Positions 27,336 through 51,263 of a stretch of 64,000 nucleotides of DNA are shown here, piece by piece. Below the pieces are notes generated by a model. It was not told the origin of the DNA. It saw only the letters and a program-made list of their open reading frames with translations, and ran no database searches. This DNA is from Pyrobaculum sp. 3827-6 (GTDB taxonomy: Archaea > Thermoproteota > Thermoprotei > Thermoproteales > Thermoproteaceae), in assembly GCF_025641885.1 (NCBI RefSeq), contig NZ_JAOTQN010000001.1:868001-932000 (forward strand), given 5' to 3'. Position numbers and translations under genes: made by a program. Each line of letters opens with the position of its first letter. The first letter of the stretch is position 1.

Positions 27336-27615
27336 GGGCAACTGCGCATCTACCGCGCACCAATGCCGCATCCCTTCACGAGGCCCCGCCAGCCCTCTAA
27401 ATGGCAAGGCCACCAGCAACTATCAGCGGCATTCGGAGGGATCCGAGGTCTTCTAGAGCACGTTCCTGGGATGATGCCGGTGTTGTGAATTGATCACGCT
27501 GATCCCAGCCGCGGTTGCGGCTGGGGTGCCTACGCCGCTAGATGAAATTATGTAAGAGAGCACCGCGCCGCGGATCTAGACGGGGTAGCACCTCTCGCCC
27601 CGTCCTATTTGTCGC
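27336..27615. other. Island left boundary region with a strong hairpin
   Basis: No gene seen. At 27504-27525 a perfect 9-bp stem (CCCAGCCGC / GCGGCTGGG, loop GGTT) is followed by GTGCC, and could terminate trmO transcription or be a boundary structure. Just upstream, GGGATGATG...CTGATCCC has C-box-like and D-box-like words with a short closing stem, but the 39-nt length is too small for a standard C/D RNA. Confidence 0.4.
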
Positions 27616-27692
27616 GTTTTACGTTGTATCTCCGCCGTTATGCGTAGACTTTGAGTAGATAAGTCTTATATATCCCGGCGTAGCGGCGTTTC
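27616..27692 (+). promoter_or_regulatory. R-box promoter copy R1 (class B)
   Basis: The first of nine near-identical modules. From TTTTACGTTGTATCTCC to the start codon is 76 nt. The class B middle reads CGTAGACTTTGAGTA-ATAAG, followed by the TATA box CTTATATA (27664-27671), CCCGG, and a CGGCG-rich block just before ATG 27693. The TATA-to-ATG distance of about 25 nt implies a leaderless transcript. Confidence 0.8.
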
Positions 27693-27851
27693 ATGAAGGC
27701 TCCGGGACCCGGGCTTGAGGCGGCTGTGTTGGTGGCTGTGGGGCTGGTTGTGCTGGTGGTTGCGTTAACACAAAGCGATTTATCTAAATATCAAGACCCG
27801 TTGTTTCCGGGGGTGAAGATGGCGAAGCCAGCCACGTGCCAGAGTGTGTGA
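27693..27851 (+). pseudogene. Truncated N-terminus of a serine protease paralogue
   Basis: 52 codons directly behind R1: MKAPGPGLEAAVLVAVGLVVLVVAL, a hydrophobic anchor, then DPLFPGVKM and a stop soon after. The protease behind R5 has DPIYPGVEI at the same point after its anchor. It is followed by a partner-type gene just as the R5 protease is. I infer a protease gene that lost its catalytic domain; expression of a 52-residue membrane peptide remains possible. Confidence 0.55.
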
Positions 27852-27878
27852 ATAGATTCTACGGCTTGGGGTTTAGGT

Positions 27879-28907: not shown

Positions 28908-29269
28908 GAGGTTTTCCCCCGCCCACGTTTTCGCGGGGGCGTTAATCTCCCGGAGGCGCTTTGATACATGCTACGTGCGTCTATCAAGCCGTTCCAAACC
29001 CCCATGGGATTTATCTTGAAACGTGGGGCACTAAGTCCACCAGCACGCCGCTTCTTGAATAGATAGCTTCCTCTAGCGTGAAGAGACGTGGCGGTTCTCT
29101 GGCGTTGGCGATGGTTAAGAGTTGGCGTCTCAAGGTTTGCAGTTGCTATTTTATCCCTGGGTGCAGGATTTCGGCGGCCGTGCCGTTTTTGACGAATATG
29201 GCTTCTCGTGCTGTCGCCGCGGTTGCTGTGTGAGGCGACTAGGCGTCTGCCGGCCCATCAAGCCGCTTT

Positions 29270-29346
29270 GTTTTACGTTGTATCTACACCGCTATGTGTG
29301 GACTGTGAGTATGCAAACCATATATATCCCGGCACAGCGGCGCGTC
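29270..29346 (+). promoter_or_regulatory. R-box promoter copy R2 (class A)
   Basis: TTTTACGTTGTATCT at 29271 to ATG 29347 is 76 nt. The class A middle is TGTGAGTATGCAAACC, followed by TATATAT (29319-29326) and CCCGGCACAGCGGCG. The left arm is CACCGCTATG, an 8/10 match to the reverse complement of the right arm CACAGCGGCG. Confidence 0.8.
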
Positions 29347-31650
29347 ATGAAGGTTCCGAAGCCCCGAGCGCTAGTGGGCGGGGCGTATTCAAAGCGCTTA
29401 GGCTCTTTATCTGGAGCGGCTTCAGAGCCCAGGGTTGCGGCGATTATAGTCGTGGTAGTGATAGTGTTGCCTATGTTTGCATTATCTCAAGTTTTAGAAA
29501 TTCCGGAACAGAAAGGACAAAAGCTGTTCGTGTACCTAGTTGAGTCAGATATACCGCTTGGAGATGAGGTCCCCCATTTACCCGGCGCCAAGTGGGCTCT
29601 TGGCGAGCAGGCGCTGGTGGTGTTCGTGCCTAGGGACGTAGGGCGGGGCTTTGTACTATTTACAAACGAGACTGTGGACATACCGGCATACGACAGGAAA
29701 TACTTCTTGCTAGCGCTCCCCGCGGGGGCCAAGCCGGCTAAGGCTAGGGGCAACGCCACGTTGAAGACACCAGACGGGGAATTCCCCGTGGTGTTTAGAA
29801 AGCCAGATGGGGGGTTAATAGAGGTTGTGGCGGGGAGCGTAGACGAGGCCTTCAAAATATTGAGGGAGTTGGGCTTTCAGCCGGAGTTCCGCGGGCGGGC
29901 GAGACTTGAAAGAGGCGGCGGATCTAGACCGGACGGCGCGTCAGCCGCGGCGGCCGCCCCCGCCCCCAGCACTGGCGCCTCGCTATACGTCTACGGCGGG
30001 GTGTACTTCAGACCGGTGAGAGTGAGCAGTAGCTATACGGAATACGTAGTGCCAGTACATGGGGAATCCGGCGCCAGCGCTTGTAGAAACGTGCCCGACG
30101 CGGCGTATATCGGCTACGACGCGGCTTCGCTATCACTAGGCGTGTTAATTAAAGGCGGCTCTGTAGACGGCGTGTTGACAGCAGACGTCTACCGCATAAA
30201 CGCCGACGGCACATGCACGCTTCTTCAATCCAGCTCCTACACCTTGGCCGACAGAGCCAGGTTGTGGATTTCTGGTGTTAACCTAGACAGCAGCCGGGAT
30301 AGCGAGCTGGCGGTTAGACTCAGAGTTTACATAAACACGTACTCCGGCGCGCCGGCCGTTAGCATAAACGGCACTGTGCAGTACCTCCGATACTACTACC
30401 GTAACTACACACTAGCTGAGATGTTATACGCCACGGCCACAGACTACTATGGACGGCTGAGCGGATACTCGGTGGGTAGCTATATCGACAGAATTCTAAT
30501 AGGGCCCTACGCCGCCTTCGACGGCCTAGTCGAGGGGACCTTCACGGGGGGCGTAGCCCTGCAGTTGACCACAGACGCCGTGGGCGGTACATGTCCGGGA
30601 CTTATGTGGGAGCTGTGGCTCAACGGCATGTGGTATGTGGCGGGGTCAACGGCATACGGCAGTTATAACAGTGGGGCTAACGGATGTTTTTACGAAATAG
30701 ACACGGGGACCTACAGCCTCGGCGCCTATCCCTACAGCTTTGCCAAATCCTTCGGCGGGGCGCTCTCCTGGCTTGTCAAAATAAAGTTTGACAACGGCGC
30801 TACTCCATACGTGAGGTCTATTTTCGTCAGAACCGCCGAGGTTTTCAGAGCGTGGCGCTGGGTAGAGCAGTGGAGGGATTTCCCAGACGCCATGGATAAG
30901 ATATGGAGGAACCCCTACGCGGCCTCCGTCCTCGAAATATACGGCGCCCCTTCCGACCCCCAAGCCGGCCCATATGTATACCACGGGCTCGTACTCCTCA
31001 GAGTTAATGATATATACGACACGTACCAGCGAATAATGCTCCAAGTCGCAGGGCGCTTTGTGTCTGGTAGTTATGTGGATTATATAAAGGGGTTTGAAGT
31101 GTACATGAGGCTGTCTATTCCAACGAAGACTAGCTCAGGTTCGGCCTCTCTGTACAAGGCCAACTACATTAAAGGGACCTCTATTGCCGATGTCACAAAG
31201 CCTTGGCTTATAGACGTCGCTCAGAGAGTTCTCGATGCTATAAACTTCATCTTAATCTTCGTGCCAAGCAAACTGGCGTCTCTACTCGCCTTCTTAGCAG
31301 GCCAGGCACTGCAGACTGCGTCAGGTAGCTATAACCTGGACATTATCGATAGTAATAACGTGAGAGTTTGGTGGACCGCACCTTGGACCGGATCAGAGTC
31401 AGATTCGCTATTATTCGCCATAAGTCTTCCCACGGCGGCGGCAGATCCTTATGCGAGCATGCCCATAGAGGTGAAAATCACCAAAGCCTGTTTAGAACAG
31501 TACTGCATCAGCCCAGATCAGGGACTCAAGGGTTATATCCAGCCGACAAATCCATTCATCTATTCTGCCTTAAGACACGCCGAGGTGAAAACGTGGATGT
31601 TTAGAGGACTAACAAGCGCCGGTATGAAATATGTACTTAATGACTCCTAA
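29347..31650 (+). CDS. Large exported Tyr/Gly-rich surface protein
   Basis: 767 residues. A basic head (MKVPKPRALVGGAYSKRLG) precedes one hydrophobic segment, AAIIVVVVIVLPMFAL (about 36-52). The rest is an extracellular beta-rich chain with an Ala/Pro linker near residue 200 and several N-glycosylation sequons (NET, NAT, NGT, NYT). A second hydrophobic stretch, FILIFVPSKLASLLAFLAGQAL, lies near residue 640. No known family; not an S-layer type I recognise. The frame is open further upstream through R2, but ATG 29347 is fixed by the TATA box. It overlaps the membrane gene at 31631. Confidence 0.75.
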   Translation: MKVPKPRALVGGAYSKRLGSLSGAASEPRVAAIIVVVVIVLPMFALSQVLEIPEQKGQKLFVYLVESDIPLGDEVPHLPGAKWALGEQALVVFVPRDVGRGFVLFTNETVDIPAYDRKYFLLALPAGAKPAKARGNATLKTPDGEFPVVFRKPDGGLIEVVAGSVDEAFKILRELGFQPEFRGRARLERGGGSRPDGASAAAAAPAPSTGASLYVYGGVYFRPVRVSSSYTEYVVPVHGESGASACRNVPDAAYIGYDAASLSLGVLIKGGSVDGVLTADVYRINADGTCTLLQSSSYTLADRARLWISGVNLDSSRDSELAVRLRVYINTYSGAPAVSINGTVQYLRYYYRNYTLAEMLYATATDYYGRLSGYSVGSYIDRILIGPYAAFDGLVEGTFTGGVALQLTTDAVGGTCPGLMWELWLNGMWYVAGSTAYGSYNSGANGCFYEIDTGTYSLGAYPYSFAKSFGGALSWLVKIKFDNGATPYVRSIFVRTAEVFRAWRWVEQWRDFPDAMDKIWRNPYAASVLEIYGAPSDPQAGPYVYHGLVLLRVNDIYDTYQRIMLQVAGRFVSGSYVDYIKGFEVYMRLSIPTKTSSGSASLYKANYIKGTSIADVTKPWLIDVAQRVLDAINFILIFVPSKLASLLAFLAGQALQTASGSYNLDIIDSNNVRVWWTAPWTGSESDSLLFAISLPTAAADPYASMPIEVKITKACLEQYCISPDQGLKGYIQPTNPFIYSALRHAEVKTWMFRGLTSAGMKYVLNDS

Positions 31651-32152: not shown

Positions 32153-32313
32153 ACGGGAAAGTCGATCCGCCAAGGCCGACGGCCACCTAGGCGCCGATTT
32201 GACACCTATTTTAGAGACGCTGTGCTTGCGCTTGCTCAAATCTCAGCAAATTTGTGATATAGAATGCCGCGTGTTAAACGCCACAGTGTTTACCACGCCG
32301 TCCTTAATGCCCG

Positions 32314-32389
32314 AGTTTACGTTGTATCTCCGCCGCTATGTGCGAATCAGGAGTATGCAAACCATATATATCCCGGCACAGCGGCGGGC
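32314..32389 (+). promoter_or_regulatory. R-box promoter copy R3 (class A)
   Basis: TTTACGTTGTATCTCC then CGCCGCTATG (left arm), GCGAATCAGGAGTATGCAAA, TATATAT (32365-32371), CCCGG and right arm CACAGCGGCG, ending at GTG 32390. The arms match at 9 of 10 positions and bracket the TATA box. Confidence 0.82.
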
Positions 32390-33934
32390 GTGGCGCAGAA
32401 ACCCCGAGTAATCAAGCTGGTGGCGTTGGCGGCTTTGGTTGCCGTGGTGTTTGTGGTGCTGGGGTTTCAGACGCCTAGCCCGGGGGTCACGCTGAGGTTT
32501 GAGCTCTACGAGGCTGGCGTCAAGAAGAGCGACCTCTTTACAAGGCCTGACGTGGCCGCCGTGGTCTTCGTAAGAGCCGTCACGCCGGATGGAGAAGTGG
32601 CAGTTTTCTCAGGGCCCACCAGGGGCTCTGTACACATACCAGCCGGCGCCCTAGCCGACGTGGCTAAGAACTGGACTGAATTACTGAGGGCGAGGGGGCA
32701 CGACCCCGAGGACTTCTTCACGGCGCTTATAGTCAGCCTGGCGGTTGTAAACAAAACCAGTGGGAGGCCTCTGTTCTACACCACCTACTTCCTAGACTAC
32801 CCCCCAGCCAAGGTGGCGAGGGGAGACAGAGAGCTGATATACACGCTACATGTGGCAAAGGGCAGGGGGGAGTGGAGGGCGCATGTGGCTAAGGTGGATA
32901 GAGAGGAGAAGAGAGGACTGCTTGCAAGCTACGGCTCTGCGCCTCCCTCGATGAAGCCGCCGTATGCCGAGCCGCCGAAAGACACGTGGTGTGAAGTAGT
33001 GAATCCAGACCCCCCGGTGTTTATCTGCTGGTATAGAAAGGCTTGGGTGGGAGTTGACAACTTAACCGCCGTGTTTCCCTCTACGTACTTCACAAACTAC
33101 AACGGCAGGCTGTATATGAAAGTGCCTGTTGTCATTGCGGTAAACAACTTTACATACAGCGGATCGGTGGGGCTGAGCATAATAGGCGGTATATTGACTA
33201 CTTCACAATTAGCCGTCGGCGTCTCTTTATCGGTTCCGGGTAACAGCAGATCCTCAATTAACTTAGCTAGATGGAGCTGGGGAGGTAAGCAGTACTATTT
33301 AACAGACGGGCTGTTCTTAGGTCCTACCAGCTCTGGCTGGATTTGGATATTGGGGAGGCCTGTCTTCGTCTCGTACGACGTCTACTACGAGGGGCCCATA
33401 GGCAGAGAATATATACGAGAGGAGGACTACTTCTACATAGCGGATATCTACATCAGCGGTAGCACAATTGTAAGTGGAAAAGATTTTGGCCTGCCCCAGG
33501 AAATTATTGACTTCTTCTACGGCGGGGTAGATAAGCAACGACTCTCCATTTCCAACACTGCGCTTTCAGACGGGGCTCTTCAGCCCGGCGAGACTATGTG
33601 GTTCCACGAGATATTCCCCTGTGGGGTTGGTTTTGAAGTGGATATCCCAGTGGGCGCCGTGGCGCTGGCAGTTTTGACCAGAACGCCGATTCCCATAACA
33701 CTGCCTAAAGGCGTATTCCCCGGCATAGACATATCGCTGTCTATTCAAGGCGCCGTGATAGAAGTCGCAGGCTCGATAACCAACTACGGCGACCACCCCG
33801 GCGTCCCCAACGACTACAACGTCCCGGAGTACATATACGCCGCTGTGAGCAAGTATCAATACACCGCGACGGACTTGTGGGGCAACACCTGCCACAACCA
33901 AGTGCCACCCGTCATATACATAGAGGCTAGGTAA
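32390..33934 (+). CDS. Large exported surface protein, paralogue of the R9 product
   Basis: 514 residues from GTG: head MAQKPRVIK, hydrophobic segment LVALAALVAVVFVVLGF, then an extracellular chain. The first about 180 residues resemble the R9 protein in layout (a VAVVNKTSGRPLFYTTYF-like strand set after a helical L-x-RARGHDPED segment; R9 has LARKLGYKPDE). Near the C-terminus VPAGA/VLxR-type segments are also shared (IPVGAVALAVLTRTPIPITLPKG versus VPAGAIVNWVILKRFGVVLPSH). Sequons include NKT, NLT and NFT. No known family. No membrane gene follows. Confidence 0.75.
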   Translation: MAQKPRVIKLVALAALVAVVFVVLGFQTPSPGVTLRFELYEAGVKKSDLFTRPDVAAVVFVRAVTPDGEVAVFSGPTRGSVHIPAGALADVAKNWTELLRARGHDPEDFFTALIVSLAVVNKTSGRPLFYTTYFLDYPPAKVARGDRELIYTLHVAKGRGEWRAHVAKVDREEKRGLLASYGSAPPSMKPPYAEPPKDTWCEVVNPDPPVFICWYRKAWVGVDNLTAVFPSTYFTNYNGRLYMKVPVVIAVNNFTYSGSVGLSIIGGILTTSQLAVGVSLSVPGNSRSSINLARWSWGGKQYYLTDGLFLGPTSSGWIWILGRPVFVSYDVYYEGPIGREYIREEDYFYIADIYISGSTIVSGKDFGLPQEIIDFFYGGVDKQRLSISNTALSDGALQPGETMWFHEIFPCGVGFEVDIPVGAVALAVLTRTPIPITLPKGVFPGIDISLSIQGAVIEVAGSITNYGDHPGVPNDYNVPEYIYAAVSKYQYTATDLWGNTCHNQVPPVIYIEAR

Positions 33935-34417
33935 AGCCCCATCTATTTTTACTGTGAAGGAGAAGAGGGCGGAGCTGGCCGTAGGTAGAGATGTATAGGT
34001 TTCGGCCAAGGAGAGGCGAAGTCATAAAGGGAGATGGAAGACCAGCGCGCCAGCGCAGAGGGCAGAGGCGAGACGGAATACACGACTACGACGGCTTTGG
34101 TGGAGAATGGGAGGTGGAGATATGGTGAATTAGAAGTAGCTCTCAGAGGCGCCAACTAATGCGCCCGGGGGATCCCCCTGTGGAGTAGCGTGTCTACTTT
34201 GAGCCATGTGGGCGTTGGGGGTAGAAATTATGTAGCGCGGCTACGCGCGTGCCGAACCGGCGCCAGAGACGCTTAGTTCGGAATATCGATTGGCAACGTG
34301 TCGGCGCGTTGCCGTGCTGGAGCTTCCGCGCAGGAGACGCCGCCGGGGCGGCGGAGAGGCTATCTGCGGCGGAGGCGGGGCACGTCACTGTGACTACCAT
34401 GCTGTTCTCTCCGCTGT
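33935..34417. other. Gene-free stretch between R3 and R4 units
   Basis: No coding region is convincing. The first about 200 bases are purine-rich on the plus strand (GGAGAAGAGGGCGG..., AGGGAGATGGAAG...). The remainder is GC-rich with short frames only. It may be decayed coding sequence from an earlier unit. Confidence 0.35.
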
Positions 34418-34493
34418 GTTTTACGTTGCATTTCCGCCGCTATCCGTAGACTTTGAGTACATAAGTCCTATAAATCCGGGCGCAACGCCAGGC
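34418..34493 (+). promoter_or_regulatory. R-box promoter copy R4 (class B)
   Basis: TTTTACGTTGCATTTCC, CGCCGCTATC, then the class B middle CGTAGACTTTGAGTACATAAG, TATA box CCTATAAAT (34477-34485) and CCGGGCGCAACG before ATG 34494. The right-hand arm of the inverted repeat is eroded. Confidence 0.75.
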
Positions 34494-34619
34494 ATGGCTC
34501 CAAAACCTAAAACCTGGACCAGCGGCGTCCGCAGTAGCGGCGGCTTTCGAGGTTGCCGAATGCAAAAGAGGTCAGAATTTCAACCCCTACGAAATCCCTC
34601 TCATACACCTACGAGCTGA
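34494..34619 (+). pseudogene. Decayed first gene of the R4 unit
   Basis: A 41-codon frame starts at the R4 ATG (MAPKPKTWTSG...) but lacks the hydrophobic segment seen in all other R-box genes. In the next frame the same DNA reads PAASAVAAAFEVAEC, close to the usual anchor, so a frameshift after about codon 8 is likely. The remnant ends 6 nt before the partner-type gene. Confidence 0.5.
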
Positions 34620-35966: not shown

Positions 35967-35978
35967 GCCCTCCGCAGT

Positions 35979-36054
35979 ATTTACGTTGTACCTCCGCCGT
36001 TATGCGTAGACTTTGAGTAGATAAGTCTTATATATTCCGGCACGGCGGCGTTTC
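35979..36054 (+). promoter_or_regulatory. R-box promoter copy R5 (class B)
   Basis: TTTACGTTGTACCTCC, CGCCGTTATG, class B middle CGTAGACTTTGAGTAGATAAG, TATA box CTTATATAT (36027-36035), CCGGCACGGCGGCG, ending at GTG 36055. Confidence 0.8.
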
Positions 36055-36843
36055 GTGAAGATTCAAGAGGTCCTGAAAATAGCGGCGTTGACCGCCGTTG
36101 TGCTGGCCGTGTTTGTGGCATATGCCGGACTTACAGATAGGGTTGATCCCATATATCCTGGTGTAGAGATCGAATCCAACAAGATCAATGCACTCTGGCC
36201 GGGGGCGTACTGCTCCGCCGGCGTTCCCGTACAGTACAGCGAGTCGGGAGGATCGCTGGGCTTTTTAATTGCTAGCCACTGCACTGATCCCGGCGATTGG
36301 CAAAAGCTAGTATTTCAACCCTATTACGTAGGGGGTGGCGATAACAACTACGCCGGCTATACTGTGGATTGGGGAACCAATGACGCATACCACGAGCCAG
36401 ATCGTTCCAAGCCCGACGCCGCCGTGTGGTGGGTTGTGAACAGGGGAGTTAGCTATTATGTCCCCACGGGGTTATGTGGTTGGAGGCAGAGCTGGGCGCC
36501 GGTCATAGAGGTAATCCCGGACGCGCAGCTGGCTTACAGCTACGGGGCATGGAAGATTGGATATGTGACTTCGTGCACCGGTTCCGACTACGCGCAACTA
36601 ATACCTGACGATAGGTACTCTGGTAGAGTCTACGCCGTCGATTATAATATAATGTCCGCTCAAGACCATGACAGCGGTGGCATAGTCTTCAGAGCTGGAT
36701 GTAAGGGCTCGCTGTGCGGTGTAAGGGCAATTGGTATTGTAATAGGCGCGATACCTCCGGGCGGTCCATACTACTATGTTTTAGTGCAGTCTGCTGACTA
36801 CGCAATCAAGTACTATGGCGTGTATCCCTATGTGGCTCAGTAG
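36055..36843 (+). CDS. Exported trypsin-fold (S1/PA clan) serine protease
   Basis: 262 residues: anchor or signal LKIAALTAVVLAVFVAYA, then a chymotrypsin-like domain. The triad is readable: His75 in GFLIASHCTD, Asp121 in KPDAAVWWV, Ser207 in DHDSGGIVF. Cys53 and Cys76 flank the His as the conserved His-loop disulfide of the family does; C141, C174, C216 and C221 could form others. Extracellular proteases of this fold are uncommon in archaea, where subtilisins dominate. The GTG start is set by the R5 TATA box. The partner gene starts inside its end. Confidence 0.85.
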   Translation: MKIQEVLKIAALTAVVLAVFVAYAGLTDRVDPIYPGVEIESNKINALWPGAYCSAGVPVQYSESGGSLGFLIASHCTDPGDWQKLVFQPYYVGGGDNNYAGYTVDWGTNDAYHEPDRSKPDAAVWWVVNRGVSYYVPTGLCGWRQSWAPVIEVIPDAQLAYSYGAWKIGYVTSCTGSDYAQLIPDDRYSGRVYAVDYNIMSAQDHDSGGIVFRAGCKGSLCGVRAIGIVIGAIPPGGPYYYVLVQSADYAIKYYGVYPYVAQ

Positions 36844-39210: not shown

Positions 39211-39221
39211 TCACTCCGTTT

Positions 39222-39297
39222 TTTTACGTTGTACCTCCGCCGCTATCCGCAGACTATGAGTACATAAGGGATATATGTCCCGGCACAGCTGTGTTCT
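39222..39297 (+). promoter_or_regulatory. R-box promoter copy R6 (class B)
   Basis: TTTTTACGTTGTACCTCC, CGCCGCTATC, class B-like middle CGCAGACTATGAGTACATAAG, TATA box GATATATG (39269-39276), CCCGGCACAGC, ending at ATG 39298. The last ten bases before the ATG differ from the other copies. Confidence 0.75.
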
Positions 39298-40362
39298 ATG
39301 GAGTCTCATCAAGTCTTGAAAATGACGGCTTTAGCCGCCGTTGTGCTTTCCGCGGTTGCGCTGGGCTCCGTGTGGTATCAGGTGGACAACTACACCGTGT
39401 TCAACTTGACGGGGTTGATAGATCACTTCAAGCCCACCTACGTCTTCAAGCTGGGCAACTGCGACGCCTACGTCTACGTTGCTAGGTCTTTTAACGACTC
39501 CACTCCGATGCTTGCCTACGGTAGGCTCCAGCTTCCGCCCCCGAAGCTGGCCGCGGATGTCGATTTCAACAAGCTCCTTGACGCCCTCCTTAAGTTGCCA
39601 GGTGGCGACTTGGAAATAGAGGTGGTGATTTACGACATCGTCGCCTCGGATCGCCTGCGTGTGGCCGTAAGCGCGTCTAACCGCACGGAGCTGGTTAGGA
39701 AAGTCGGCGAGAGGCTGGGAGTGGCTGTGTACGAGAGGGTTGAGGAGGCGAAGGAGAGGCTGAAGGAGGCGGCTGGGCGCGGGGAGAGCGCAAAGGTGGC
39801 TTTTATAACCTCGGCGACGAGGAGGACGGGGGATGTGCTGGTGGCGGTGTATAGAGATGGGCCCTCCGTGAGGATCTGGACGACGAATTTAACCGAGGCG
39901 CTTAAGGCACTGCGGCAGATGGAAGGGGAGGTTGGGAAAGGGATACCCGCATACATAACGGTGGGCTCCTACTGGAATAGCGAGCAGATTGAAGAGACTT
40001 TCCGCAACGCCGCAATGCGCTGGGAGGAGGAGATGGGCACCCGCAGGAGGGTTGAAAGAGGAGTTGAGGGGCTAGTTCACATCTTCGAGCTATCCCGCCC
40101 CCTAGGCCCCGTGTACCTCGTGTTCCCATATGTCAACGGCACACCGCCTGATGAGAAGACGGCCAAGAGGCTTCTGGAGAGGTACGTGGAGCTAACCGGC
40201 TTCTGCCCGCAACCGCTAATCGCAGAATTTTGGCCAAAAACCGGGATGGACCTCCTCATCGGCGGGCCCAGCTACACAGCCGCGGCCACCATAGCCGCCA
40301 CCGCAATAGGCGCCGCGGCGGTCGCCTCGGCGGCGTTAAAGCTGAGGAGAAGAAGGCGATAA
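39298..40362 (+). CDS. Membrane-anchored partner-type surface protein
   Basis: 354 residues. Unlike its paralogue at 36830, it is fused directly to an R-box head: MESHQVLKMTALAAVVLSAVALGS, the same head style as the R5 protease. The ectodomain carries CDAYVYVARSFNDSTPM, YITVGSYWNSE, RVERGVEGLVHIFELSRPLGP, CPQPLIAEFWPKTGMD, followed by helix AATIAATAIGAAAVASAAL and an RRRRR tail. Identity to 36830-37909 is clear over the full length. So the partner can stand alone behind its own R box. Function unknown. Confidence 0.75.
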   Translation: MESHQVLKMTALAAVVLSAVALGSVWYQVDNYTVFNLTGLIDHFKPTYVFKLGNCDAYVYVARSFNDSTPMLAYGRLQLPPPKLAADVDFNKLLDALLKLPGGDLEIEVVIYDIVASDRLRVAVSASNRTELVRKVGERLGVAVYERVEEAKERLKEAAGRGESAKVAFITSATRRTGDVLVAVYRDGPSVRIWTTNLTEALKALRQMEGEVGKGIPAYITVGSYWNSEQIEETFRNAAMRWEEEMGTRRRVERGVEGLVHIFELSRPLGPVYLVFPYVNGTPPDEKTAKRLLERYVELTGFCPQPLIAEFWPKTGMDLLIGGPSYTAAATIAATAIGAAAVASAALKLRRRRR

Positions 40363-40913
40363 ATTCAACGGCATTCTTTCCACAGTTGTTTGCGTCTCCC
40401 AACCAGCGCCCCCCTTTTAACGGCTTCAGTAGATAGGCGAGGTCTATACAGCACGCCAGGTAGGTAGGCGGCAGACACGGTATGCAACACGACACTGCCG
40501 TCGGGGGAGGTCTGGAGGATAATAGCGTTGCGGTGTCTGGACGCCCAGGCGGCTTAGAGAGGGGTAAAGCCCTGTCGGGGGAGGTACGTGGACCGGGTCT
40601 GATATCTCCGAGAGTCTTACTAACATAGCGAGCCCTCTAAGTCCGCCAAGGCGGTGAGGACGTCGGCCCTAGGCGTAGAGGATATTAGGAGACGTGCAAC
40701 GGGGGATAATCCCCGAGAGGCGCCAGGTGATAAAACTGTCATAACTTGCGAAGCGACGCTGACGGTAGGCGGCGGAAGACTTATGAAATAATGGCCGGGG
40801 GAGGCCCGCTTTGTAATACGCTTGCTTGGGGGGATGTCCGCCACGAGTCTGTATCATGTAAAACTCGCTCTACCTGTCCGTTGCTGCGCCAGTCGCGCAA
40901 TTTCCTCAGCTGT
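40363..40913. other. Gene-free stretch of about 550 bases before R7
   Basis: Only short frames on both strands; no recognisable gene, RNA or repeat. Composition is mixed with several direct GGGGGAGG words at about 40500, 40575 and 40795, which may hint at decayed sequence. Confidence 0.35.
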
Positions 40914-40989
40914 GGTTTACGTTGTATCTCCGCCGCTATGTGCGAATCAGGAGTATGCAAAGCCTATAAACCCCGGCACAGCGGCGGGC
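40914..40989 (+). promoter_or_regulatory. R-box promoter copy R7 (class A)
   Basis: TTTACGTTGTATCTCC, left arm CGCCGCTATG (40931-40940), GCGAATCAGGAGTATGCAAAG, TATA box CCTATAAAC (40963-40971), right arm CACAGCGGCG (40977-40986), ATG 40990. Arms match 9/10 and are separated by 36 nt. Confidence 0.85.
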
Positions 40990-41712
40990 ATGGCTCAGAA
41001 ACTCCAAATGGTTAAGCTGGCGGTGCTCGCCGCGTTGGCGGCCGCGGCGGTGGCCGCGGCTCTGAGCGCCGGCGCGTTTAAAGTGACGTTCACATATGAG
41101 AACGGTGTTGTGAAGATGGTAGATCCCCAGGGCGGTGTGCACACAGCGGCGCTGAACCTGAAGGAGGGGGTTAAGAAGGTTGAGATAAGGCTGTTGCCAA
41201 ACGGCTCCGCCGTGGTGCTAGAGGGTGGGAGGCCCATTGCTATAATTAAGGAAATAGTCATGAGAGGGGGCGAGGCTAGGCGTGTTGAATTCAAGCTGTT
41301 GCCCAACGGCACACTTCTGGTAATAGACGGCGGCAAGGTCTGGTCTAAGGGTAGAATTGAGGGGAAAGGCGGGGGAGAAGGCGCCAGCCAGGCCGGTGAG
41401 AAGCCGAGCCCGGCCATAATAAAATCGCCACAGCCTATCTCCGGCTCGCTACCCCCCGGCACTGGAGATAGCTACGGGCCTTACACCGGGCTTATCAACA
41501 TAGAGTTCAGCGTCTCGTGGAGCCCCACGGGCTATCTCTGCCTCGGGTATGTAGATTTGAAAACGGGAAGCGGACCCGGCATATGTAGCTACGGCCAGAG
41601 AGCCTCCGCCTCCTTCTCTCTAGATCCGTCTCAAAATATCATAGCTGTGGTGTACAACCCCAACTCTTATTCAATAACTTATTCGGGCACGCTGACGCTA
41701 TACTACCAATAA
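40990..41712 (+). CDS. Exported surface protein, first gene of the R7 operon
   Basis: 240 residues: head MAQKLQMVK, anchor LAVLAALAAAAVAAALSAGAF, two short beta repeats (KKVEIRLLPNGSAVVLEGG and RRVEFKLLPNGTLLVIDGG), a Gly/Glu/Pro linker around 125-155, and a C-terminal beta domain with two Cys (YLCLGY, GICSYG). The repeated VEx(K/R)LLPNG motif suggests an internal duplication. No family recognised. The stop overlaps the next start (TAATG), so it is coupled to the membrane protein. Confidence 0.72.
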   Translation: MAQKLQMVKLAVLAALAAAAVAAALSAGAFKVTFTYENGVVKMVDPQGGVHTAALNLKEGVKKVEIRLLPNGSAVVLEGGRPIAIIKEIVMRGGEARRVEFKLLPNGTLLVIDGGKVWSKGRIEGKGGGEGASQAGEKPSPAIIKSPQPISGSLPPGTGDSYGPYTGLINIEFSVSWSPTGYLCLGYVDLKTGSGPGICSYGQRASASFSLDPSQNIIAVVYNPNSYSITYSGTLTLYYQ

Positions 41713-42461
41713 TGCCTCTCCAAACACCCTCTTTTTTCTCAATTGTGTCTCGATTTGTCTTTCTGTTTAAAATGATATTAAGCAGAGCCCCTCTCCGCTC
41801 TATGTCTCTGCTTTTCCGTCTGTGCAGGTGGGCTCCTCCCCTCCTCTACCTAACCCTGGTTCACGTGTGGCTGTTGCCGGTCCTGTTCCTCCTCTATGTT
41901 GGAGGGGCCGTGGGGGGCTTTGTCTTTCCGGCCACGGCGGCCTCGGCGGTGGCCGCCGCGGTTGTCGGCCTTCTCCCTGGGGGGAGGGGGGCCGGGGGGC
42001 TGGATCTGCTGGAGCTGTTCCACAGACGCGGGGGTGTCTGCGCCGTAGCTCCTGTTTTGTACGTCGCGTCATACGCGGCGCTTGCATTTGTCGCAACCAC
42101 CTCGCTGTATCTGTACACAACCCCCCTGGTGGTGGTTGAGGTAGCTCCTGCGTCCGCCGCGGCCGGCGTGGGGGGACTTGGCAACCACACCGCGGCTCCC
42201 GTCGGCAACGTAACCGAGGTGGTGTTCCACGTAAGGGGCGTGGGGGGCGTCGCCCCGGGAGGGAAGTTTATAGTAGTTGTGAAGGGGGATGTGTTCGGGG
42301 GGTCGGCAGGCTGGGTTTTGTACACGGCTCTGTGGGCCGCTTCCTTCTACAGCGCCTTGGCTGTGGCGTTGGTCCTGGCGTGGAGGCTTGTGGTGCGATC
42401 CGCCGAGTTGGCGAGGAGGGCCGAGGTGTTTTATGAAAAGGCGAGGGAGATTCTATCCTGA
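41712..42461 (+). CDS. Polytopic membrane protein of the R7 operon
   Basis: 249 residues. Two N-terminal helices (LLYLTLVHVWLLPVLFLLYV, ATAASAVAAAVVGLL), a third around VLYVASYAALAFVATTSLYLY, an external loop of about 80 residues with two sequons (NHT, NVT), and a last helix FYSALAVALVLAWRLV followed by a cytoplasmic amphipathic tail SAELARRAEVFYEKAREIL. It lies between an exported protein and a DNA-binding protein, the order expected of a transmembrane signalling module. No family recognised. Confidence 0.7.
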   Translation: MPLQTPSFFSIVSRFVFLFKMILSRAPLRSMSLLFRLCRWAPPLLYLTLVHVWLLPVLFLLYVGGAVGGFVFPATAASAVAAAVVGLLPGGRGAGGLDLLELFHRRGGVCAVAPVLYVASYAALAFVATTSLYLYTTPLVVVEVAPASAAAGVGGLGNHTAAPVGNVTEVVFHVRGVGGVAPGGKFIVVVKGDVFGGSAGWVLYTALWAASFYSALAVALVLAWRLVVRSAELARRAEVFYEKAREILS

Positions 42462-42708
42462 CCTCTACGTCTTGACGAAAATCCTGCTCCTCCTCGCCGA
42501 TGGACACAGCAGGAGAGAGGCGGCGTTGCTGTCCGGGTTGAGCTACAGCCGCTTTCAGCAATACGTGGAGTATCTAAAAGAGAGGGGGTTCGTAACGGGC
42601 GACGAGGAGCTGAGGCTGACACCCAGGGGCGTAGAGGCGGCGGCGAGGCTCGCCGAGCTGATAAAGGAGCTGACAGGAGAAGAGCCGAGAAGCCTCAAGA
42701 GGAGGTAG
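42433..42708 (+). CDS. Winged-helix transcription regulator of the R7 operon
   Basis: 91 residues: RFYPDLYVLTKILLLLADGHSRREAALLSGLSYSRFQQYVEYLKERGFVTGDEELRLTPRGVEAAARLAELI. Helix-turn-helix around HSRREAALLSGLSYSRFQQYVEYL and wing with the RLTPRG turn match archaeal HTH_45-like winged helices. The ATG is 29 nt inside the membrane-protein gene, so both are produced together. It is the only evident transcription factor in the island, making it the leading candidate to bind R boxes; that is inference. Confidence 0.8.
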   Translation: MKRRGRFYPDLYVLTKILLLLADGHSRREAALLSGLSYSRFQQYVEYLKERGFVTGDEELRLTPRGVEAAARLAELIKELTGEEPRSLKRR

Positions 42709-43631: not shown

Positions 43632-44042
43632 CTAGGGCGACGTGCCGCGGCTAATCACGTCGACGCCCGATCTGGCGGCCGCCTCGGCTTGTCTCTCGTC
43701 CAGCGTCAGCAACGGGGCCTTCCGCCTCAGCGCCTGGGCTATGTACAAAGCGTCGTACACAGTGATGCGGAGGTCGAGCGCCAGCCTAAACGCGTCGGGG
43801 AGGTAGATCGCCTCGGGCTCCAGCTCTATATTCCTCTCAACCAGCGACAGGAGGATTTCCAAGAGCTTCAAGGCCCCTCCCCTATCTACGAGGCCCCTCA
43901 TATGGGCCTTCCAAACCGCGTTCGCCGCCTCCTTCAACACCAGATCTACCGAAATCGACCTGGCTATATACCTCGAAATTGTTCTCCAGCCCGGCTCCTT
44001 CAAGAGGAAGGCGGATAGAGCCGACGCGTCAACCACTATCAC
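43632..44042 (-). CDS. vapC: VapC-type PIN-domain toxin
   Basis: 136 residues with the PIN fold: first acidic residue in MIVVDASALSAFLLKE, Glu in LVLKEAANAVWKA, and Asp in ITVYDALYIAQAL, then LLTLDERQAEAA. VapC proteins are Mg-dependent RNases held in check by VapB. The start overlaps the antitoxin gene by 14 nt, the classical order with antitoxin first. Such pairs are abundant in Crenarchaea. Confidence 0.92.
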   Translation of the reverse strand: MIVVDASALSAFLLKEPGWRTISRYIARSISVDLVLKEAANAVWKAHMRGLVDRGGALKLLEILLSLVERNIELEPEAIYLPDAFRLALDLRITVYDALYIAQALRRKAPLLTLDERQAEAAARSGVDVISRGTSP

Positions 44043-44259
44043 GATCCTCCCTCACGGAGCCGGCAGAGAAGCCCCGAGGCGCCTCGACAGGAATCTCCTC
44101 AAGCTCCCTCAGCACTCGCTCCATGTTCTCCTCCGCCTCCAGCTGCCTGATCCGCTCCTCGACGAACCTCCTTAACTCCTCGGCCCAGTTCACTCTGTCC
44201 CTATACTTAGCCATCTTCTCCTTAACCTCGCGCCGCACCTTAAAACTCACCACAGCCAC
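44029..44259 (-). CDS. vapB: VapB-type antitoxin
   Basis: 76 residues: MAVVSFKVRREVKEKMAKYRDRVNWAEELRRFVEERI, a ribbon-helix-helix-like head, then a charged helix and a disordered acidic tail that would wrap the toxin. It sits directly upstream of and overlaps the PIN toxin. TATA TTATATTTAAG lies at 44273-44283; the first GTG (44259) or the next ones at 44253 and 44250 could be the start. Confidence 0.85.
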   Translation of the reverse strand: MAVVSFKVRREVKEKMAKYRDRVNWAEELRRFVEERIRQLEAEENMERVLRELEEIPVEAPRGFSAGSVREDRDSG

Positions 44260-44717: not shown

Positions 44718-44810
44718 GCCCCGGTAGCTCAGCCTGGTGGAGCGCCTCACTGGTAAAGGCCTCCGGGCTACCGGCTGAGGAGGTCCCGGGTTCGAATCCC
44801 GGCCGGGGCT
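44718..44810 (+). tRNA. tRNA-Thr(GGT) with intron
   Basis: Acceptor GCCCCGG/CCGGGGC with T73, D stem GCTC/GAGC, T arm CCGGG-TTCGAAT-CCCGG. Anticodon stem CCTCA/TGAGG with loop CTGGTAA-C closes after removal of about 19 nt behind position 37, the canonical intron site, giving anticodon GGT. CCA is not encoded (CTT follows). From base 44728 onward 84 bp are identical to 47117-47200. Confidence 0.93.
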
Positions 44811-44811
44811 C
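44728..44811 (+). repeat. 84-bp perfect direct repeat (left copy, in tRNA-Thr)
   Basis: Runs from the D stem of tRNA-Thr to one base past T73, intron included. The identical right copy is at 47117-47200. The repeats flank 2.3 kb containing the PaRep2b gene, the layout of an att duplication or of a tandem duplication. Confidence 0.95.
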
Positions 44812-45836: not shown

Positions 45837-47093
45837 GTGGAGCTGGCTGGCGGCGCAGACGAGATAAGGATTAAGTACTCAAGGGCTATGGAGGCCGTGG
45901 GCGTAGAAGCCCACATAAAGGACTTCACCGCCGAGGGCAAGAGGCCGAGGGCCAAGCTGGTGGTGAGGCTCGGCGGAGACGTGGCCGAGTACACAATACG
46001 CCTACGTAAAGACAACGCCGTGGAGCTCGACTTCCGCACAACCGACCGCGAAGAGACTGAGCGGAGGGCCGCCGTGCTTAGGGCTGTCGGCGTCAAGGCA
46101 GAGGTGAAGAAAATCTACGACAAGTCCCGCGGCCGTGACGTGTGGCGCATACAGGTCTCGACTAACGCCTTAGCCGCCGACTCCGTCCACGAGGCTGTTA
46201 GAAAGGCGGTGGCGGAGTTCCTTCAGCGGTGTAGAGAGGCCGGCGCCATCGAAGAGGAGACATACAGCCGTTTAGTCAAGAAGTTCGAGAGGGGAGTGCC
46301 GGAGTGGGGCGAGGTTAGGTTCTCCATATGGCTGAGAAAAGACGGCGCTGTAGAAGTAGTGTATCGACCCAGAGATCCCCAGTCCTTCAACAAAGCGGTG
46401 GAGCTTCTGCGGGGATTGGGGATGGGAGACAGATGCGAGGGCGATTGGTGCCTCGTCCACTTCACCGCAAGGGAGCCGGGCGTGGGCGAGGAGGGCTTCG
46501 TCCGCATTACCGTAGACGGCCTTAGGTACATCGGTTGGCTGGCCCTACACGGAGAGGGCGAGGCAAAGGAGAAGGCCCAGTGGCTGAAGGAAGCGCTTTT
46601 AAAAGAGGCGGAGGCAAGGGGGAGGGAGGTGCGCCAGCGGCTGGAGGAGTACTTCAGAGAGGGGGAGCAGTGGGGCTCTGTGAAGCCTCCCGTCGAGAGG
46701 GAGGTCGAGGTAGAGGACAGGAAGATGAATGTGCGCGTTGAGGAGGTAGAGGCGTGGAGAGAGAAGAGCGAGAAGAAGGAGCACCTAGTCGTCAAAATAC
46801 GGGCAAAGGTCGTTGAGGAGAACAGCGAAGTAGCGGTGGAGAAGGAGGCCAGGTTCTATAAAAAGAGCGGCGGCGTAGTGGGCTATATAATTATACACGA
46901 CAGCGCCGAGGGCGGACGCGAGGCCGACTACATGAGGACGGCGGCTGTGCTGAAGGCCCTTGGAATAAAGGAGTGGTCAGTGCACAAAAAGAGGGGTAGG
47001 CCAAAGCGGATAGAATTCACTGGAGGCGCCCTAGACGCGTTCATGCGCCTAGAGCCCGTATGCGCCGCTCTGGGCCAATGCAGAAAAACTTAG
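45837..47093 (+). CDS. PaRep2b protein, main C-terminal part (copy C)
   Basis: 418 codons, joined in frame to coding sequence back to 45747, so the true protein was about 590 residues with the preceding entry. It contains the family's typical C-terminal segments: WLALHGEGEAKEKAQWLKEALLKEA, EYFREGEQWGSVKPPVERE, EKKEHLVVKIRAKVVEE, EGGREADYMRTAAVLKALG and the end GGALDAFMRLEPVCAALGQCRKT. PaRep2b function is unknown; it is a multi-copy family in Pyrobaculum. The stop lies 13 nt before a damaged tRNA-Thr copy. Confidence 0.82.
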   Translation: MELAGGADEIRIKYSRAMEAVGVEAHIKDFTAEGKRPRAKLVVRLGGDVAEYTIRLRKDNAVELDFRTTDREETERRAAVLRAVGVKAEVKKIYDKSRGRDVWRIQVSTNALAADSVHEAVRKAVAEFLQRCREAGAIEEETYSRLVKKFERGVPEWGEVRFSIWLRKDGAVEVVYRPRDPQSFNKAVELLRGLGMGDRCEGDWCLVHFTAREPGVGEEGFVRITVDGLRYIGWLALHGEGEAKEKAQWLKEALLKEAEARGREVRQRLEEYFREGEQWGSVKPPVEREVEVEDRKMNVRVEEVEAWREKSEKKEHLVVKIRAKVVEENSEVAVEKEARFYKKSGGVVGYIIIHDSAEGGREADYMRTAAVLKALGIKEWSVHKKRGRPKRIEFTGGALDAFMRLEPVCAALGQCRKT

Positions 47094-47106: not shown

Positions 47107-47202
47107 GGCCGTGTATCTCAGCCTGGTGGAGCGCCTCACTGGTAAAGGCCTCCGGGCTACCGGCTGAGGAGGTCCCGGGTTCGAATCCCGGCCGGGGCTC
47201 CA
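47107..47202 (+). pseudogene. tRNA-Thr pseudogene or 3' duplicate
   Basis: From 47117 it is identical to tRNA-Thr(GGT) for 84 bp and even encodes CCA at 47200-47202. The 5' acceptor strand reads GGCCGTG instead of GCCCCGG and base 10 is T, so three acceptor pairs and the first D-stem pair fail. The TATA box is altered to CTTAGTATATTT. It probably cannot make a mature tRNA. Confidence 0.8.
47117..47200 (+). repeat. 84-bp perfect direct repeat (right copy)
   Basis: Identical to 44728-44811. Marks the right end of the 2.3-kb PaRep2b segment. Confidence 0.95.
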
Positions 47203-47361
47203 TGTAAATTTGAATCGAAGTTTTACTATACATGTCGACTAGCGCGGTGGATTAGACTATGCGTGTGGGGTCGAGTCGTGGCCGGGGCTACCAGCGGTGT
47301 GGCCCTCGCGGGGGCCGGGGGTGCGGGCCAACGCCCACGTGATATGTAGCTCTTTCCGCAG

Positions 47362-47437
47362 TTTTTGCGTTGTATCTCCGCCGCTGTGTGCGAATCAGGA
47401 GTATGCAAAGCTTATAAACCTCGGCACAGCGGCGGGC
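47362..47437 (+). promoter_or_regulatory. R-box promoter copy R8 (class A)
   Basis: TTTTTGCGTTGTATCTCC, left arm CGCCGCTGTG (47379-47388), GCGAATCAGGAGTATGCAAAG, TATA box CTTATAAAC (47411-47419), right arm CACAGCGGCG (47425-47434), ATG 47438. The two arms are a perfect 10/10 inverted repeat. Confidence 0.85.
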
Positions 47438-47812
47438 ATGGAAAAGAAATCCCAAATGGTTAAGCTGGCGGCGCTCGCCGCATTAACGATCGCGGCTTTA
47501 AGGGTAAACTCGTCTAAAATGACGTCCACAAGTAATGCGGTTTTCACGCACAAACGTTTGAAGCAGGCTGTAACGTGGGTCCCTAGCTTAGCTATTACTA
47601 TGGTGTTATTAATCTTAGGCGTGTCAACTTCTGCTCAAAACACAGTCTCATATAGCTGGAACTGTCCAGCCACTCCAATAGCGGGTAATAGCCCCGCTGT
47701 GTCTACGAATAGAGGCGGTGGATGGGTGACGGTTTATATAACAGTGTGTCCCCAGAAGCAATATTATGTATATTACGCGAACGATGGTACGAACAGATGG
47801 GTGTGGCTATAG
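47438..47812 (+). CDS. Composite exported protein, first part (ends at in-frame TAG)
   Basis: 124 codons. The R-box head MEKKSQMVKLAALAALTIAAL is followed by RVNSSKMTSTSNAVFTHKRL and then a second, complete signal peptide, AVTWVPSLAITMVLLILGVSTSAQ, leading into NTVSYSWNCPATPIAG. This reads as an R-box head joined to another secreted protein that had its own signal. From about 47500 the DNA is more A/T-rich than its surroundings, suggesting a foreign insert. The TAG at 47810 is followed by an open frame in phase. Confidence 0.6.
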   Translation: MEKKSQMVKLAALAALTIAALRVNSSKMTSTSNAVFTHKRLKQAVTWVPSLAITMVLLILGVSTSAQNTVSYSWNCPATPIAGNSPAVSTNRGGGWVTVYITVCPQKQYYVYYANDGTNRWVWL

Positions 47813-49194: not shown

Positions 49195-49543
49195 ATTTTT
49201 ATTTCTATATTTTGTTTTACTATTTTTAGCCGGCGTGAGAGTCGTCTAGGGTCTTCTCACAGCTCTCCAATCTGGAGGATCTGAACCCACGGCTACGGCC
49301 TACGCCGGCGGCTACGCGAGGCGGGCCGGGGATCTGCTCGCGGTGGAAGAGGGGCGCGTGCCGCTACGGGGGGGCGCAGTATGTTCTTCCACCGCTCTGT
49401 GTTGCGGCCGCCGCTGGAGCAACCCTTACGGTGTTTTTAACTAGGAGGAGGGATCCTCATCGCGATCTTTAAATTAGGTGTTTTATAGCGGCTCGTCCGC
49501 CACGGCTAAGTCTCACCTCATCTCTAGCTTAGTTTCCCCCGCA
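49195..49543. other. Gene-free stretch between R8 and R9 units
   Basis: No gene seen. Around 49272-49300 the words GGATCTGAACCCACGGC resemble a degenerate tRNA T arm on the minus strand, without the rest of a tRNA. The last 60 bases lead into R9. Confidence 0.35.
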
Positions 49544-49619
49544 GTTTTACGTTGTATCTCCGCCGCTGTGTGCGGATTTGGAGTATGCAAAGCCTATAAA
49601 CCCCGGCACAGCGGCGGGC
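49544..49619 (+). promoter_or_regulatory. R-box promoter copy R9 (class A)
   Basis: TTTTACGTTGTATCTCC, left arm CGCCGCTGTG (49561-49570), GCGGATTTGGAGTATGCAAAG, TATA box CCTATAAAC (49593-49601), right arm CACAGCGGCG (49607-49616), GTG 49620. Perfect 10/10 inverted repeat with 36 nt between arms. Confidence 0.85.
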
Positions 49620-51263
49620 GTGGCTCAGAAACTCCAGGTCAAGCTGGCGGCGCTCGCCGCGTTTGCGGCCGTGGCGGTGGTTGTGGCTTTAAGCGCTGGT
49701 GCATTTAAAGCGGCGCCTTATTATCAGAGTAGGGACGGGAGGGTGGCCGCCTATCTTGTTCAGTCCAGCGGTGGCACAAATCTGGTATTGGAAGTTGTAG
49801 ACGTCAATGGTCGGCCTGTGAATTTCACGGCGTTTTTAAGCGGTCCTGTTGTTGACAAATTTAGGGATGTTGGAGTGGTGAAGGGGAAGGGGAGGGGCAA
49901 GGCCGCAATCGGCGGGTACGTGGCCGAGGCCGCCCAGCTGGCTAGAAAACTCGGCTACAAGCCTGATGAGGTGAGATTCGGCGTCGTGGCGTTTATCACA
50001 GCTGTTGAAAAACAGGAGAACGAAACATACCTCCTCACAGACATAGTCACTATCCCGGTGGGCCCCGGCGAGGCGGTGGGCAAGGACATCGTGGCAAAGG
50101 TTAGATTTGAGCCGAGGTTCAAGATCAAGATAGGCACCGGCAGGCCGCCGGACGCCGCCGGTGACGTTGCCCAAGCCTCAAATGCCCAAAATACGCCGCC
50201 AGACACGATAGATATGGGCTGTGACTCGCCAGTAGGCTACGCCACGTGCTATAGGTACAGAGCCGTGGAGACATATGCCTCATCTGCAGAGGGTGTGCCA
50301 CTACTCGTGACAAGGACAGATAGTTTTGACAGTAAATATATATTACAAATTATACATGATCACAACATATTTTTAAGTACTCAAACAATAACATCTATTT
50401 CATTTGAGATGTCTTTTGCAGTATTCAAAAAAAGTGTAAATAACAATAACGACTTTGAAGTCCAGGCATTAGGTCCAGGCTTCGAAATTGTGCTCAGCCA
50501 GCAGACAGAGAAGAAATTACTAGAGCTTTCATGTAGATTTGCCCCAGGCCAATCCACTGAGTGTTACTATGGAAGATCTGGGTTTACACCTGTTAACTCT
50601 TATTATGCTGGTGATAGTATTCTTGCTACAGGTCTAGTGGGGGATGTTAGAGCAGTGAAATACATCCTGGAGGAGAGGTGGTGCTACATTTTCCCCTCGG
50701 GTGCCGTCTACTGCGGCGAGTGGAGGCCTACGGATGTGGAGGCATGGGGGGTGTGGCTGGCTGGGCTGTGGGGAGGAGACTCCTTCCTCCCCTATGCCGA
50801 GGTTAGCAACAACCCCTACAGCCGAGACGATAAGCTCGGCTATCTATACCAGTCTACATTAGATCTCTACCGGCTGGGGAAGGTAAATGTGAGGTGGCTA
50901 GAAAGTTACTACACTGACTACTATAAAGTTAGCTGGTCTACACTTGCGTGGAGTTCACAATCGAGTAGTTACTTTTCCGTAGGCGTGCCGGCCGGGGCTA
51001 TTGTTAACTGGGTTATTCTCAAGAGGTTCGGCGTTGTTCTGCCTAGTCATATTTCAAAGGCACTTGATAGTTTGAGTGTGGGTGTATCTGTAGGCACATC
51101 AAGACTTGATATATTAAGTTATTACGCCTCAGTACATATGTCAGCAAAAACTGCAGTTAAGTGGTCGCCGTTTTACTATGAGTTTACAAACTACTATATC
51201 AAGATGGCGGATCAGTATTATAACGTACCTGTTGCCATAGTTAGGCCGTTTATTATTGGTTAA
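49620..51263 (+). CDS. Large exported Tyr/Ser-rich surface protein (R9)
   Basis: 547 residues: head MAQKLQVK, anchor LAALAAFAAVAVVVALSAGAF, then an extracellular chain with cysteines in pairs (MGCDSPVGYATCYR, LSCRFAPGQSTECYYG, RWCYIFPSGAVYCGEW) likely to form disulfides. The N-terminal 180 residues and a late VPAGAIVNWVILKRFGVVLP segment resemble the R3 product. From about 50300 to 50650 codon use turns A/T-rich (NNNNDF), hinting at a chimeric gene. No known family. Confidence 0.75.
   Translation: MAQKLQVKLAALAAFAAVAVVVALSAGAFKAAPYYQSRDGRVAAYLVQSSGGTNLVLEVVDVNGRPVNFTAFLSGPVVDKFRDVGVVKGKGRGKAAIGGYVAEAAQLARKLGYKPDEVRFGVVAFITAVEKQENETYLLTDIVTIPVGPGEAVGKDIVAKVRFEPRFKIKIGTGRPPDAAGDVAQASNAQNTPPDTIDMGCDSPVGYATCYRYRAVETYASSAEGVPLLVTRTDSFDSKYILQIIHDHNIFLSTQTITSISFEMSFAVFKKSVNNNNDFEVQALGPGFEIVLSQQTEKKLLELSCRFAPGQSTECYYGRSGFTPVNSYYAGDSILATGLVGDVRAVKYILEERWCYIFPSGAVYCGEWRPTDVEAWGVWLAGLWGGDSFLPYAEVSNNPYSRDDKLGYLYQSTLDLYRLGKVNVRWLESYYTDYYKVSWSTLAWSSQSSSYFSVGVPAGAIVNWVILKRFGVVLPSHISKALDSLSVGVSVGTSRLDILSYYASVHMSAKTAVKWSPFYYEFTNYYIKMADQYYNVPVAIVRPFIIG

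What the first reader, a model, noticed from the sequence alone, without database searches (positions are those of the whole stretch)
40914..42708. R7 operon resembles an export-sense-regulate module
Behind R7 lie, with overlapping stops and starts, an exported protein, a polytopic membrane protein with a cytoplasmic amphipathic tail, and a 91-residue winged-helix protein. This is the order of a transmembrane signalling unit, and its own promoter is an R box. The winged-helix protein is the only evident DNA-binding regulator in the island, so autoregulation and control of R1-R9 is a testable proposal.
Basis: inference. Interest (0 to 1): 0.78.

Follow-up and report, generated by a model that had tools for sequence, protein, structure and literature searches.

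The report
Membrane-linked regulator of a secretome regulon
A membrane-protein gene that overlaps a small DNA-binding-protein gene travels with its own set of near-identical promoter boxes in several heat-loving archaea, which points to a signalling pair that switches on (or off) a batch of secreted proteins, including trypsin-like proteases, in organisms that lack two-component systems.

Summary
R7 (40907-40993) is one of 11 copies in this Pyrobaculum-group genome of an ~85-nt promoter: upstream block, partial palindrome, TATA box, start codon 25-26 nt after TATA. Behind R7 lie an exported protein E, a membrane protein M (about four TM, hand-read) and a winged-helix protein W. M and W overlap by exactly 29 nt in all 11 loci compared. 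The claimed E/M overlap is not conserved; M probably starts at 41772/41802 with its own TATA-like box.
Among 19 family genomes, R boxes occur only where the trio occurs; nine trio-less genomes have none. Where W is diverged, the box is diverged with it: G007 has five copies of a new box beside its trio, and T. uzoniensis has the palindrome TGCATACT-TTG-AGTATGCA carrying the R-box half-site. A second, paralogous trio in the same genome has an unrelated palindrome (AATACGAnTCGTATT), five exact copies, four within 7 kb.
Best reading: W binds the boxes and co-regulates a secretome that includes a trypsin-like protease; M is its membrane partner. E is disrupted in three species and relaxed, so the conserved core is M-W, not export-sense-regulate. 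Binding, sign and signal are untested.

The parts
40907..40993 (+). R7 box: archaeal promoter element in front of E
   Evidence: One of 11 copies in the genome; model R1 87.8 bits
40916..40929 (+). Block A of R7, TTTACGTTGTATCT (mean column identity 0.96 over 32 boxes)
40941..40959 (+). Block B of R7, TGCGAATC-AGG-AGTATGCA: degenerate form of the 19-bp palindrome TGCATACT-N3-AGTATGCA of T. uzoniensis; proposed W operator
40965..40970 (+). TATA box TATAAA; 9 nt after AGTA and 25 nt before the start codon (leaderless)
40990..41712 (+). E: exported/anchored protein, 240 aa, C-terminal beta-jellyroll
   Evidence: disrupted in G001, G004, G005
41732..41737 (+). T-run after E, possible archaeal terminator
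   Evidence: read directly; also in G004, G005, G015
41802..42461 (+). M: membrane protein (about four TM by hand reading, extracytoplasmic loop, positively charged cytoplasmic tail); alternative start 41772; start 41712 not conserved
42433..42461 (+). 29-nt overlap of M end and W start, same length in all 11 loci compared
42433..42708 (+). W: 91-aa winged-helix protein, proposed regulator of R boxes
27609..27694 (+). R1 box, before a remnant protease gene and the 342-aa gene 27879-28907
29263..29348 (+). R2 box, before 767-aa exported protein
32308..32393 (+). R3 box, before 514-aa exported protein
34410..34496 (+). R4 box with decayed leader, before 375-aa exported protein 34626-35753
35972..36055 (+). 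R5 box, before trypsin-like protease gene
36055..36843 (+). Secreted trypsin-like serine protease (His/Asp/Ser triad conserved with L086 protein, a Pfam Trypsin hit)
39214..39299 (+). R6 box, before 354-aa anchored protein
47355..47441 (+). R8 box with leader joined to a gene that has its own signal
49537..49623 (+). R9 box, before 547-aa exported protein

Best explanation
M and W are a membrane-linked transcription-regulator pair. W, a small winged-helix protein presumably acting as a dimer, binds the palindrome of the R box, whose inner half-site AGTA lies exactly 9 nt upstream of the TATA box, next to the site where TFB and TBP assemble. It thereby co-regulates the R-box genes, nearly all secreted or surface-anchored proteins, among them a trypsin-like protease, as well as E in front of its own genes. 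M, whose gene end is interlocked with the start of W, is inferred to hold or release W through its cytoplasmic tail in response to something outside the cell. E is best read as a regulated surface protein, not an obligatory sensor. Shown: box anatomy, distribution, co-divergence with the trio, a second trio with its own box, the fixed M/W overlap, purifying selection on W and M. Inferred: W binds the boxes, M controls W. Open: activation versus repression (activation slightly favoured by the position just upstream of BRE/TATA), the signal, and whether M-W transcription depends on R7.
For: (1) Distribution: 10 of 19 family genomes carry the trio W; strong R boxes occur in six of them and in none of nine trio-less genomes (Fisher P 0.011, not corrected for phylogeny). 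In T. tenax (G015) the only R box in the genome precedes the trio. (2) Co-divergence: G007 (W 45% identical) has a new box TACCTGGAGTACATnArGnTTATAA, five copies within 10 kb beside its trio, none in the reversed-pattern control. (3) Promoters that are not copies of the R box keep the half-site at the same spacing: T. uzoniensis TGCATACT-TTG-AGTATGCA, G012 ATGTACT-TTT-AGTACAT, G008 GTACTC-C-GAGTAC. (4) The paralogous trio on contig C3 has the unrelated palindrome AATACGAnTCGTATT: five exact copies in G000 (0.009 expected), four within 7 kb, at promoters of exported proteins including two trypsin-like ones; the same in G003, no exact copy in trio-less G002 and G006. (5) M/W overlap is 29 nt in 11 of 11 loci although W falls to about 32% identity; overlapping membrane/wHTH pairs recur across the order. 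(6) dN/dS for W is 0.07-0.17; for M mostly 0.1-0.35, with values of 0.5 and 0.73 in two of the closest pairs. (7) W is the only DNA-binding protein found in the island.
Against: No binding data. In the R boxes of this genome the left half of the palindrome is poor (dyad matches 3-5 of 8), and strongly conserved block A is not explained by W alone. The E promoter of the C3 trio has its palindrome further upstream and flipped. R boxes have spread partly by copying of promoter plus leader, so similarity among copies is not independent evidence. M has no recognised family, and a cytoplasmic contact with W is inferred only. A few loci with W relatives show no intact overlapping membrane gene.
Confidence: 0.66

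Rival explanations
1. R boxes are a strong promoter plus signal-sequence cassette copied in front of secreted-protein genes by duplication and gene conversion, with no dedicated regulator; the neighbouring wHTH is incidental.
For: Identity runs into the leader codons (133-nt repeats 78-89%); decayed or superfluous leaders at R4, R8 and X10; upstream flanks of the trio in G003 and G004 match flanks of R9 and R4 in G000; exact 146-nt promoter-leader duplication in G012.
Against: Explains copying, not the retained half-site and spacing in promoters of G007, G008, G012 and G016 that are not copies, nor the separate box of the C3 trio.
Confidence: 0.12
2. W regulates the boxes, but M has no signalling role: M is another membrane protein whose gene happens to overlap.
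For: M has no recognised domain and is less conserved than W (55% vs 75% identity to P. aerophilum).
Against: Fixed 29-nt overlap in 11 loci and similar pairs in distant families; conserved cytoplasmic tail.
Confidence: 0.13
3. A different protein (for example a genome-wide Lrp-like factor) binds the boxes; W acts elsewhere.
For: Block A is the best-conserved part and is unexplained.
Against: Boxes vanish in genomes lacking the trio, and each trio has its own box, which a shared global factor would not produce.
Confidence: 0.05
4. M and W are made as one tethered protein by +1 frameshifting at the conserved CC-TGA end of M, which would join the M tail to W at Asp10.
For: All overlaps end in CCTGA and W-frame Pro9-Asp10 is invariant; membrane-tethered wHTH activators exist in Sulfolobus (PMC6396743).
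Against: The W start codon is conserved in all loci; CCTGA is also forced by the Pro-Asp codons of W; no experimental sign of recoding.
Confidence: 0.04

Closest known systems
ArnR/ArnR1 of Sulfolobus acidocaldarius (membrane-bound one-component regulators)
   Same: Crenarchaeal membrane-associated HTH regulators acting on genes of surface structures (PMC6396743)
   Different: HTH and TM are in one polypeptide there; here two overlapping genes, M then W, with an autoregulated cluster of secreted proteins
BlaR1/BlaI and MecR1/MecI (bacterial membrane sensor plus wHTH repressor; from memory)
   Same: Membrane protein and small wHTH protein in adjacent genes, palindromic operators, control of a secreted enzyme and of themselves
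   Different: M has no HExxH protease motif in any of nine orthologues; W has no BlaI-family hit in Pfam
Sso10a / HTH_45 and AspA small winged-helix proteins of Sulfolobus
   Same: W passes the HTH_45 cut-off and matches Sso10a and AspA structures
   Different: NCBIfam Sso10a model 23.4 bits against cut-off 60; those are chromatin or partition proteins, not membrane-linked regulators
Pyrobaculum-specific expansions of secreted proteins in archaeal 'dark matter islands' (Makarova et al. 2014, PMC4158269)
   Same: Secreted, mostly beta-stranded proteins associated with membrane proteins, expanded in Pyrobaculum
   Different: In the passages read no shared promoter box, operator or regulator is mentioned

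Membership tests
PF14947 HTH_45 / winged-helix fold | Profile score above gathering cut-off; wHTH fold | tested here: met
   27.3 vs 25.5 bits; AlphaFold pLDDT 87, hits to MarR, AspA, Sso10a folds
Sso10a chromatin proteins (NF053610) | Score above curated cut-off 60 | tested here: not met
   23.4 bits
ArnR-type one-component regulator | HTH and transmembrane segments in one polypeptide | tested here: not met
   Separate overlapping ORFs in all 11 loci; recoding not excluded
BlaR1/BlaI | Zinc metalloprotease motif HExxH in the membrane sensor | tested here: not met
   Absent from nine M orthologues
BlaI (Penicillinase_R) | Pfam match of the wHTH partner | tested here: not met
   Not among Pfam hits of W at E <= 1
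Two-component system | Histidine kinase and receiver domains | tested here: not met
   No such domain in E, M or W; none found in 44 finished crenarchaeal genomes (PMC5847659)
Autoregulated regulon | Regulator binds the shared operator | not testable with these tools
   Needs EMSA or footprinting
Autoregulated regulon | Operator shared by regulator locus and targets, co-distributed with the regulator | tested here: met
S1 trypsin-like protease (R5 product) | His/Asp/Ser triad | tested here: met
   Invariant H75, D121, S207 in A7; L086 homologue is a PF00089 hit above cut-off

The most novel reading that the evidence does not exclude
Overlapping membrane-protein/winged-helix gene pairs are a lineage-wide class of transmembrane signalling module in Thermoproteales, doing the job that two-component systems do elsewhere; each pair carries its own operator, which is copied together with signal sequences to recruit new secreted proteins into its regulon.
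Probability: 0.35. Interest if true: 0.85.

Novelty: new variant of a known kind. Interest (0 to 1): 0.72.

Why it matters
Finished crenarchaeal genomes were reported to have no two-component systems (PMC5847659), so how an outside signal reaches their promoters is largely open. This gives a concrete candidate: a membrane/wHTH pair with a defined operator, a defined set of secreted targets, and two naturally different regulator-operator pairs in one genome that serve as each other's control. It also gives a function-neutral handle (shared regulation) on Pyrobaculum secreted-protein islands so far listed as dark matter.

Tried and rejected
E/M overlap at 41712 as a real start: rejected because of frame-breaking indels between species. 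A stem-loop made of CCGCCGCT...AGCGGCGG around TATA: seen by eye, not kept in R4 and R6, dropped. E as essential sensor: rejected as the default because E is truncated in G004 and G005 and frameshifted in G001 with relaxed dN/dS (0.69-0.86 against G015). A genome-wide scan for the full palindrome with 3 mismatches is close to background outside R boxes. The C-terminal domain of E resembles jellyroll or fibre proteins (Ena, Tk-SP), but the N-terminal half is not modelled (pLDDT < 50), so no ligand function was assigned. Literature searches with Pyrobaculum or Thermoproteus and promoter, regulon or membrane-bound regulator terms returned nothing recognisable as this box or gene pair; only some of those papers were opened.

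Full report
What was checked. R7 belongs to a family of promoter boxes: nine in the window and two elsewhere in the genome. Every R box in this genome has AGTA exactly 9 nt before a TATA box, and in the seven directly readable cases the start codon lies 25-26 nt after the first base of TATA, the geometry of a leaderless archaeal promoter. Most longest downstream frames begin with a hydrophobic segment. Behind R7 are E (40990-41712), M and W (42433-42708).

Corrections to the observation. M/W overlap is real and remarkable: 29 nt in all 11 loci compared, including a paralogue whose W is only about 32% identical. E/M overlap is not: the ATG at 41712 is followed by sequence with frame-breaking indels between species, and in G003, G004, G005 and G015 the M frame opens at residue 21. 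A T-run and a TATA-like TGATATTAA precede 41802 (read directly). In G007 a second copy of that genome's box stands between E and M; in G012 E lies on the opposite strand to M-W. E is cut short by different deletions in G004 and G005 and frameshifted in G001, while M and W stay open. dN/dS is 0.07-0.17 for W, mostly 0.1-0.35 for M (0.5 and 0.73 in two of the closest pairs), and 0.69-0.86 for E against G015. The conserved unit is therefore M-W.

Tests of regulation. Model R1, built from the 11 boxes, finds strong boxes only in G000, G001, G003, G004, G005 and G015 among the 19 family genomes, all with the trio; none of nine trio-less genomes has one. The matches in G001 are weaker (24-36 bits) than in the others. 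Fisher P is 0.011 without phylogenetic correction. In T. tenax the single box of the genome precedes the trio. G007, with a 45% identical W, has a different box in five copies within 10 kb next to its trio, before E, M, a trypsin-like protease and two further exported proteins. The E promoters of G016, G012 and G008, which are not copies of the R box, hold palindromes with the same inner half-site (AGTAT or AGTAC) 9 nt before TATA; that of T. uzoniensis, TGCATACT-TTG-AGTATGCA, contains the exact R-box half-site AGTATGCA. The trio R boxes of G003, G004 and G005 differ from this palindrome at two positions.

A second system in the same genome. Contig C3 holds a paralogous trio (L086 3398-4567). 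Its palindrome AATACGAnTCGTATT occurs exactly five times in G000 (0.009 expected), four times within 7 kb of the trio, and before exported proteins including two trypsin-like ones; G003 shows the same pattern; trio-less G002 and G006 have no exact copy. Two unrelated boxes, each gathered around its own trio, are hard to explain without a trans-acting factor encoded in the trio, and W is the only DNA-binding candidate found. One oddity remains: in front of the C3 E gene the palindrome lies further upstream and flipped.

Targets. R5 drives a secreted trypsin-like protease: the triad is conserved with homologues, one of which scores above the Pfam Trypsin cut-off. E carries a C-terminal beta-jellyroll (nearest solved folds Ena fibre subunits and the C-terminal part of Tk-SP). 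The other targets hit no family.

Copying. Boxes have spread partly as promoter-plus-leader cassettes: identity continues into the leader codons, R4, R8 and X10 carry leaders in front of genes with their own signal, and in G012 146 nt are duplicated exactly. Flanks of the trio in G003 and G004 match flanks of other R boxes in G000, so R boxes may also be exchange points.

Mechanism. W has a winged-helix fold. Its proposed site sits just upstream of BRE/TATA. EarA of Methanococcus also binds upstream of its promoter, and BRE changes bypass it (passage in PMC13286277), so activation is slightly favoured; repression is not excluded. M, read by hand as about four TM segments with both ends inside by charge, is the natural signal-transmitting partner, but this is inference (the hydropathy script found three segments). 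Overlapping membrane/wHTH pairs recur in the wider order, which makes the pair, rather than this island, the more general finding.

Limits. Nothing here shows binding. Species names are recalled from genome sizes. Block A is unexplained.

Noticed in passing
36815-36843; L010:2104-2132: The R5 protease gene and its anchored partner overlap by 29 nt, and so do the homologous pair in L010: the same overlap length as M/W.
   Followed up: no
27692-27860: Behind R1 lies a remnant of a protease gene (start and end pieces only) before the intact partner gene 27879-28907.
   Followed up: partly
43632-44259: PIN-domain protein (PF01850) and a 76-aa upstream gene on the minus strand, likely a VapBC-type toxin-antitoxin pair inside the island.
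   Followed up: partly
44718-44811 and 47113-47200: A tRNA-Pro gene and a 99% copy of it flank a PaRep2b gene (45837-47093), suggesting a duplication or insertion at the tRNA; only the first copy is called by ARAGORN.
   Followed up: partly
L116:7554-8032: In T. tenax the trio with its single R box lies next to a tRNA-Thr gene and W is 89% identical to Pyrobaculum, which fits lateral transfer.
   Followed up: partly
L119:8697-8842 and 9489-9634: In G012 a 146-nt promoter plus leader is duplicated without a difference in front of two different exported proteins.
   Followed up: partly
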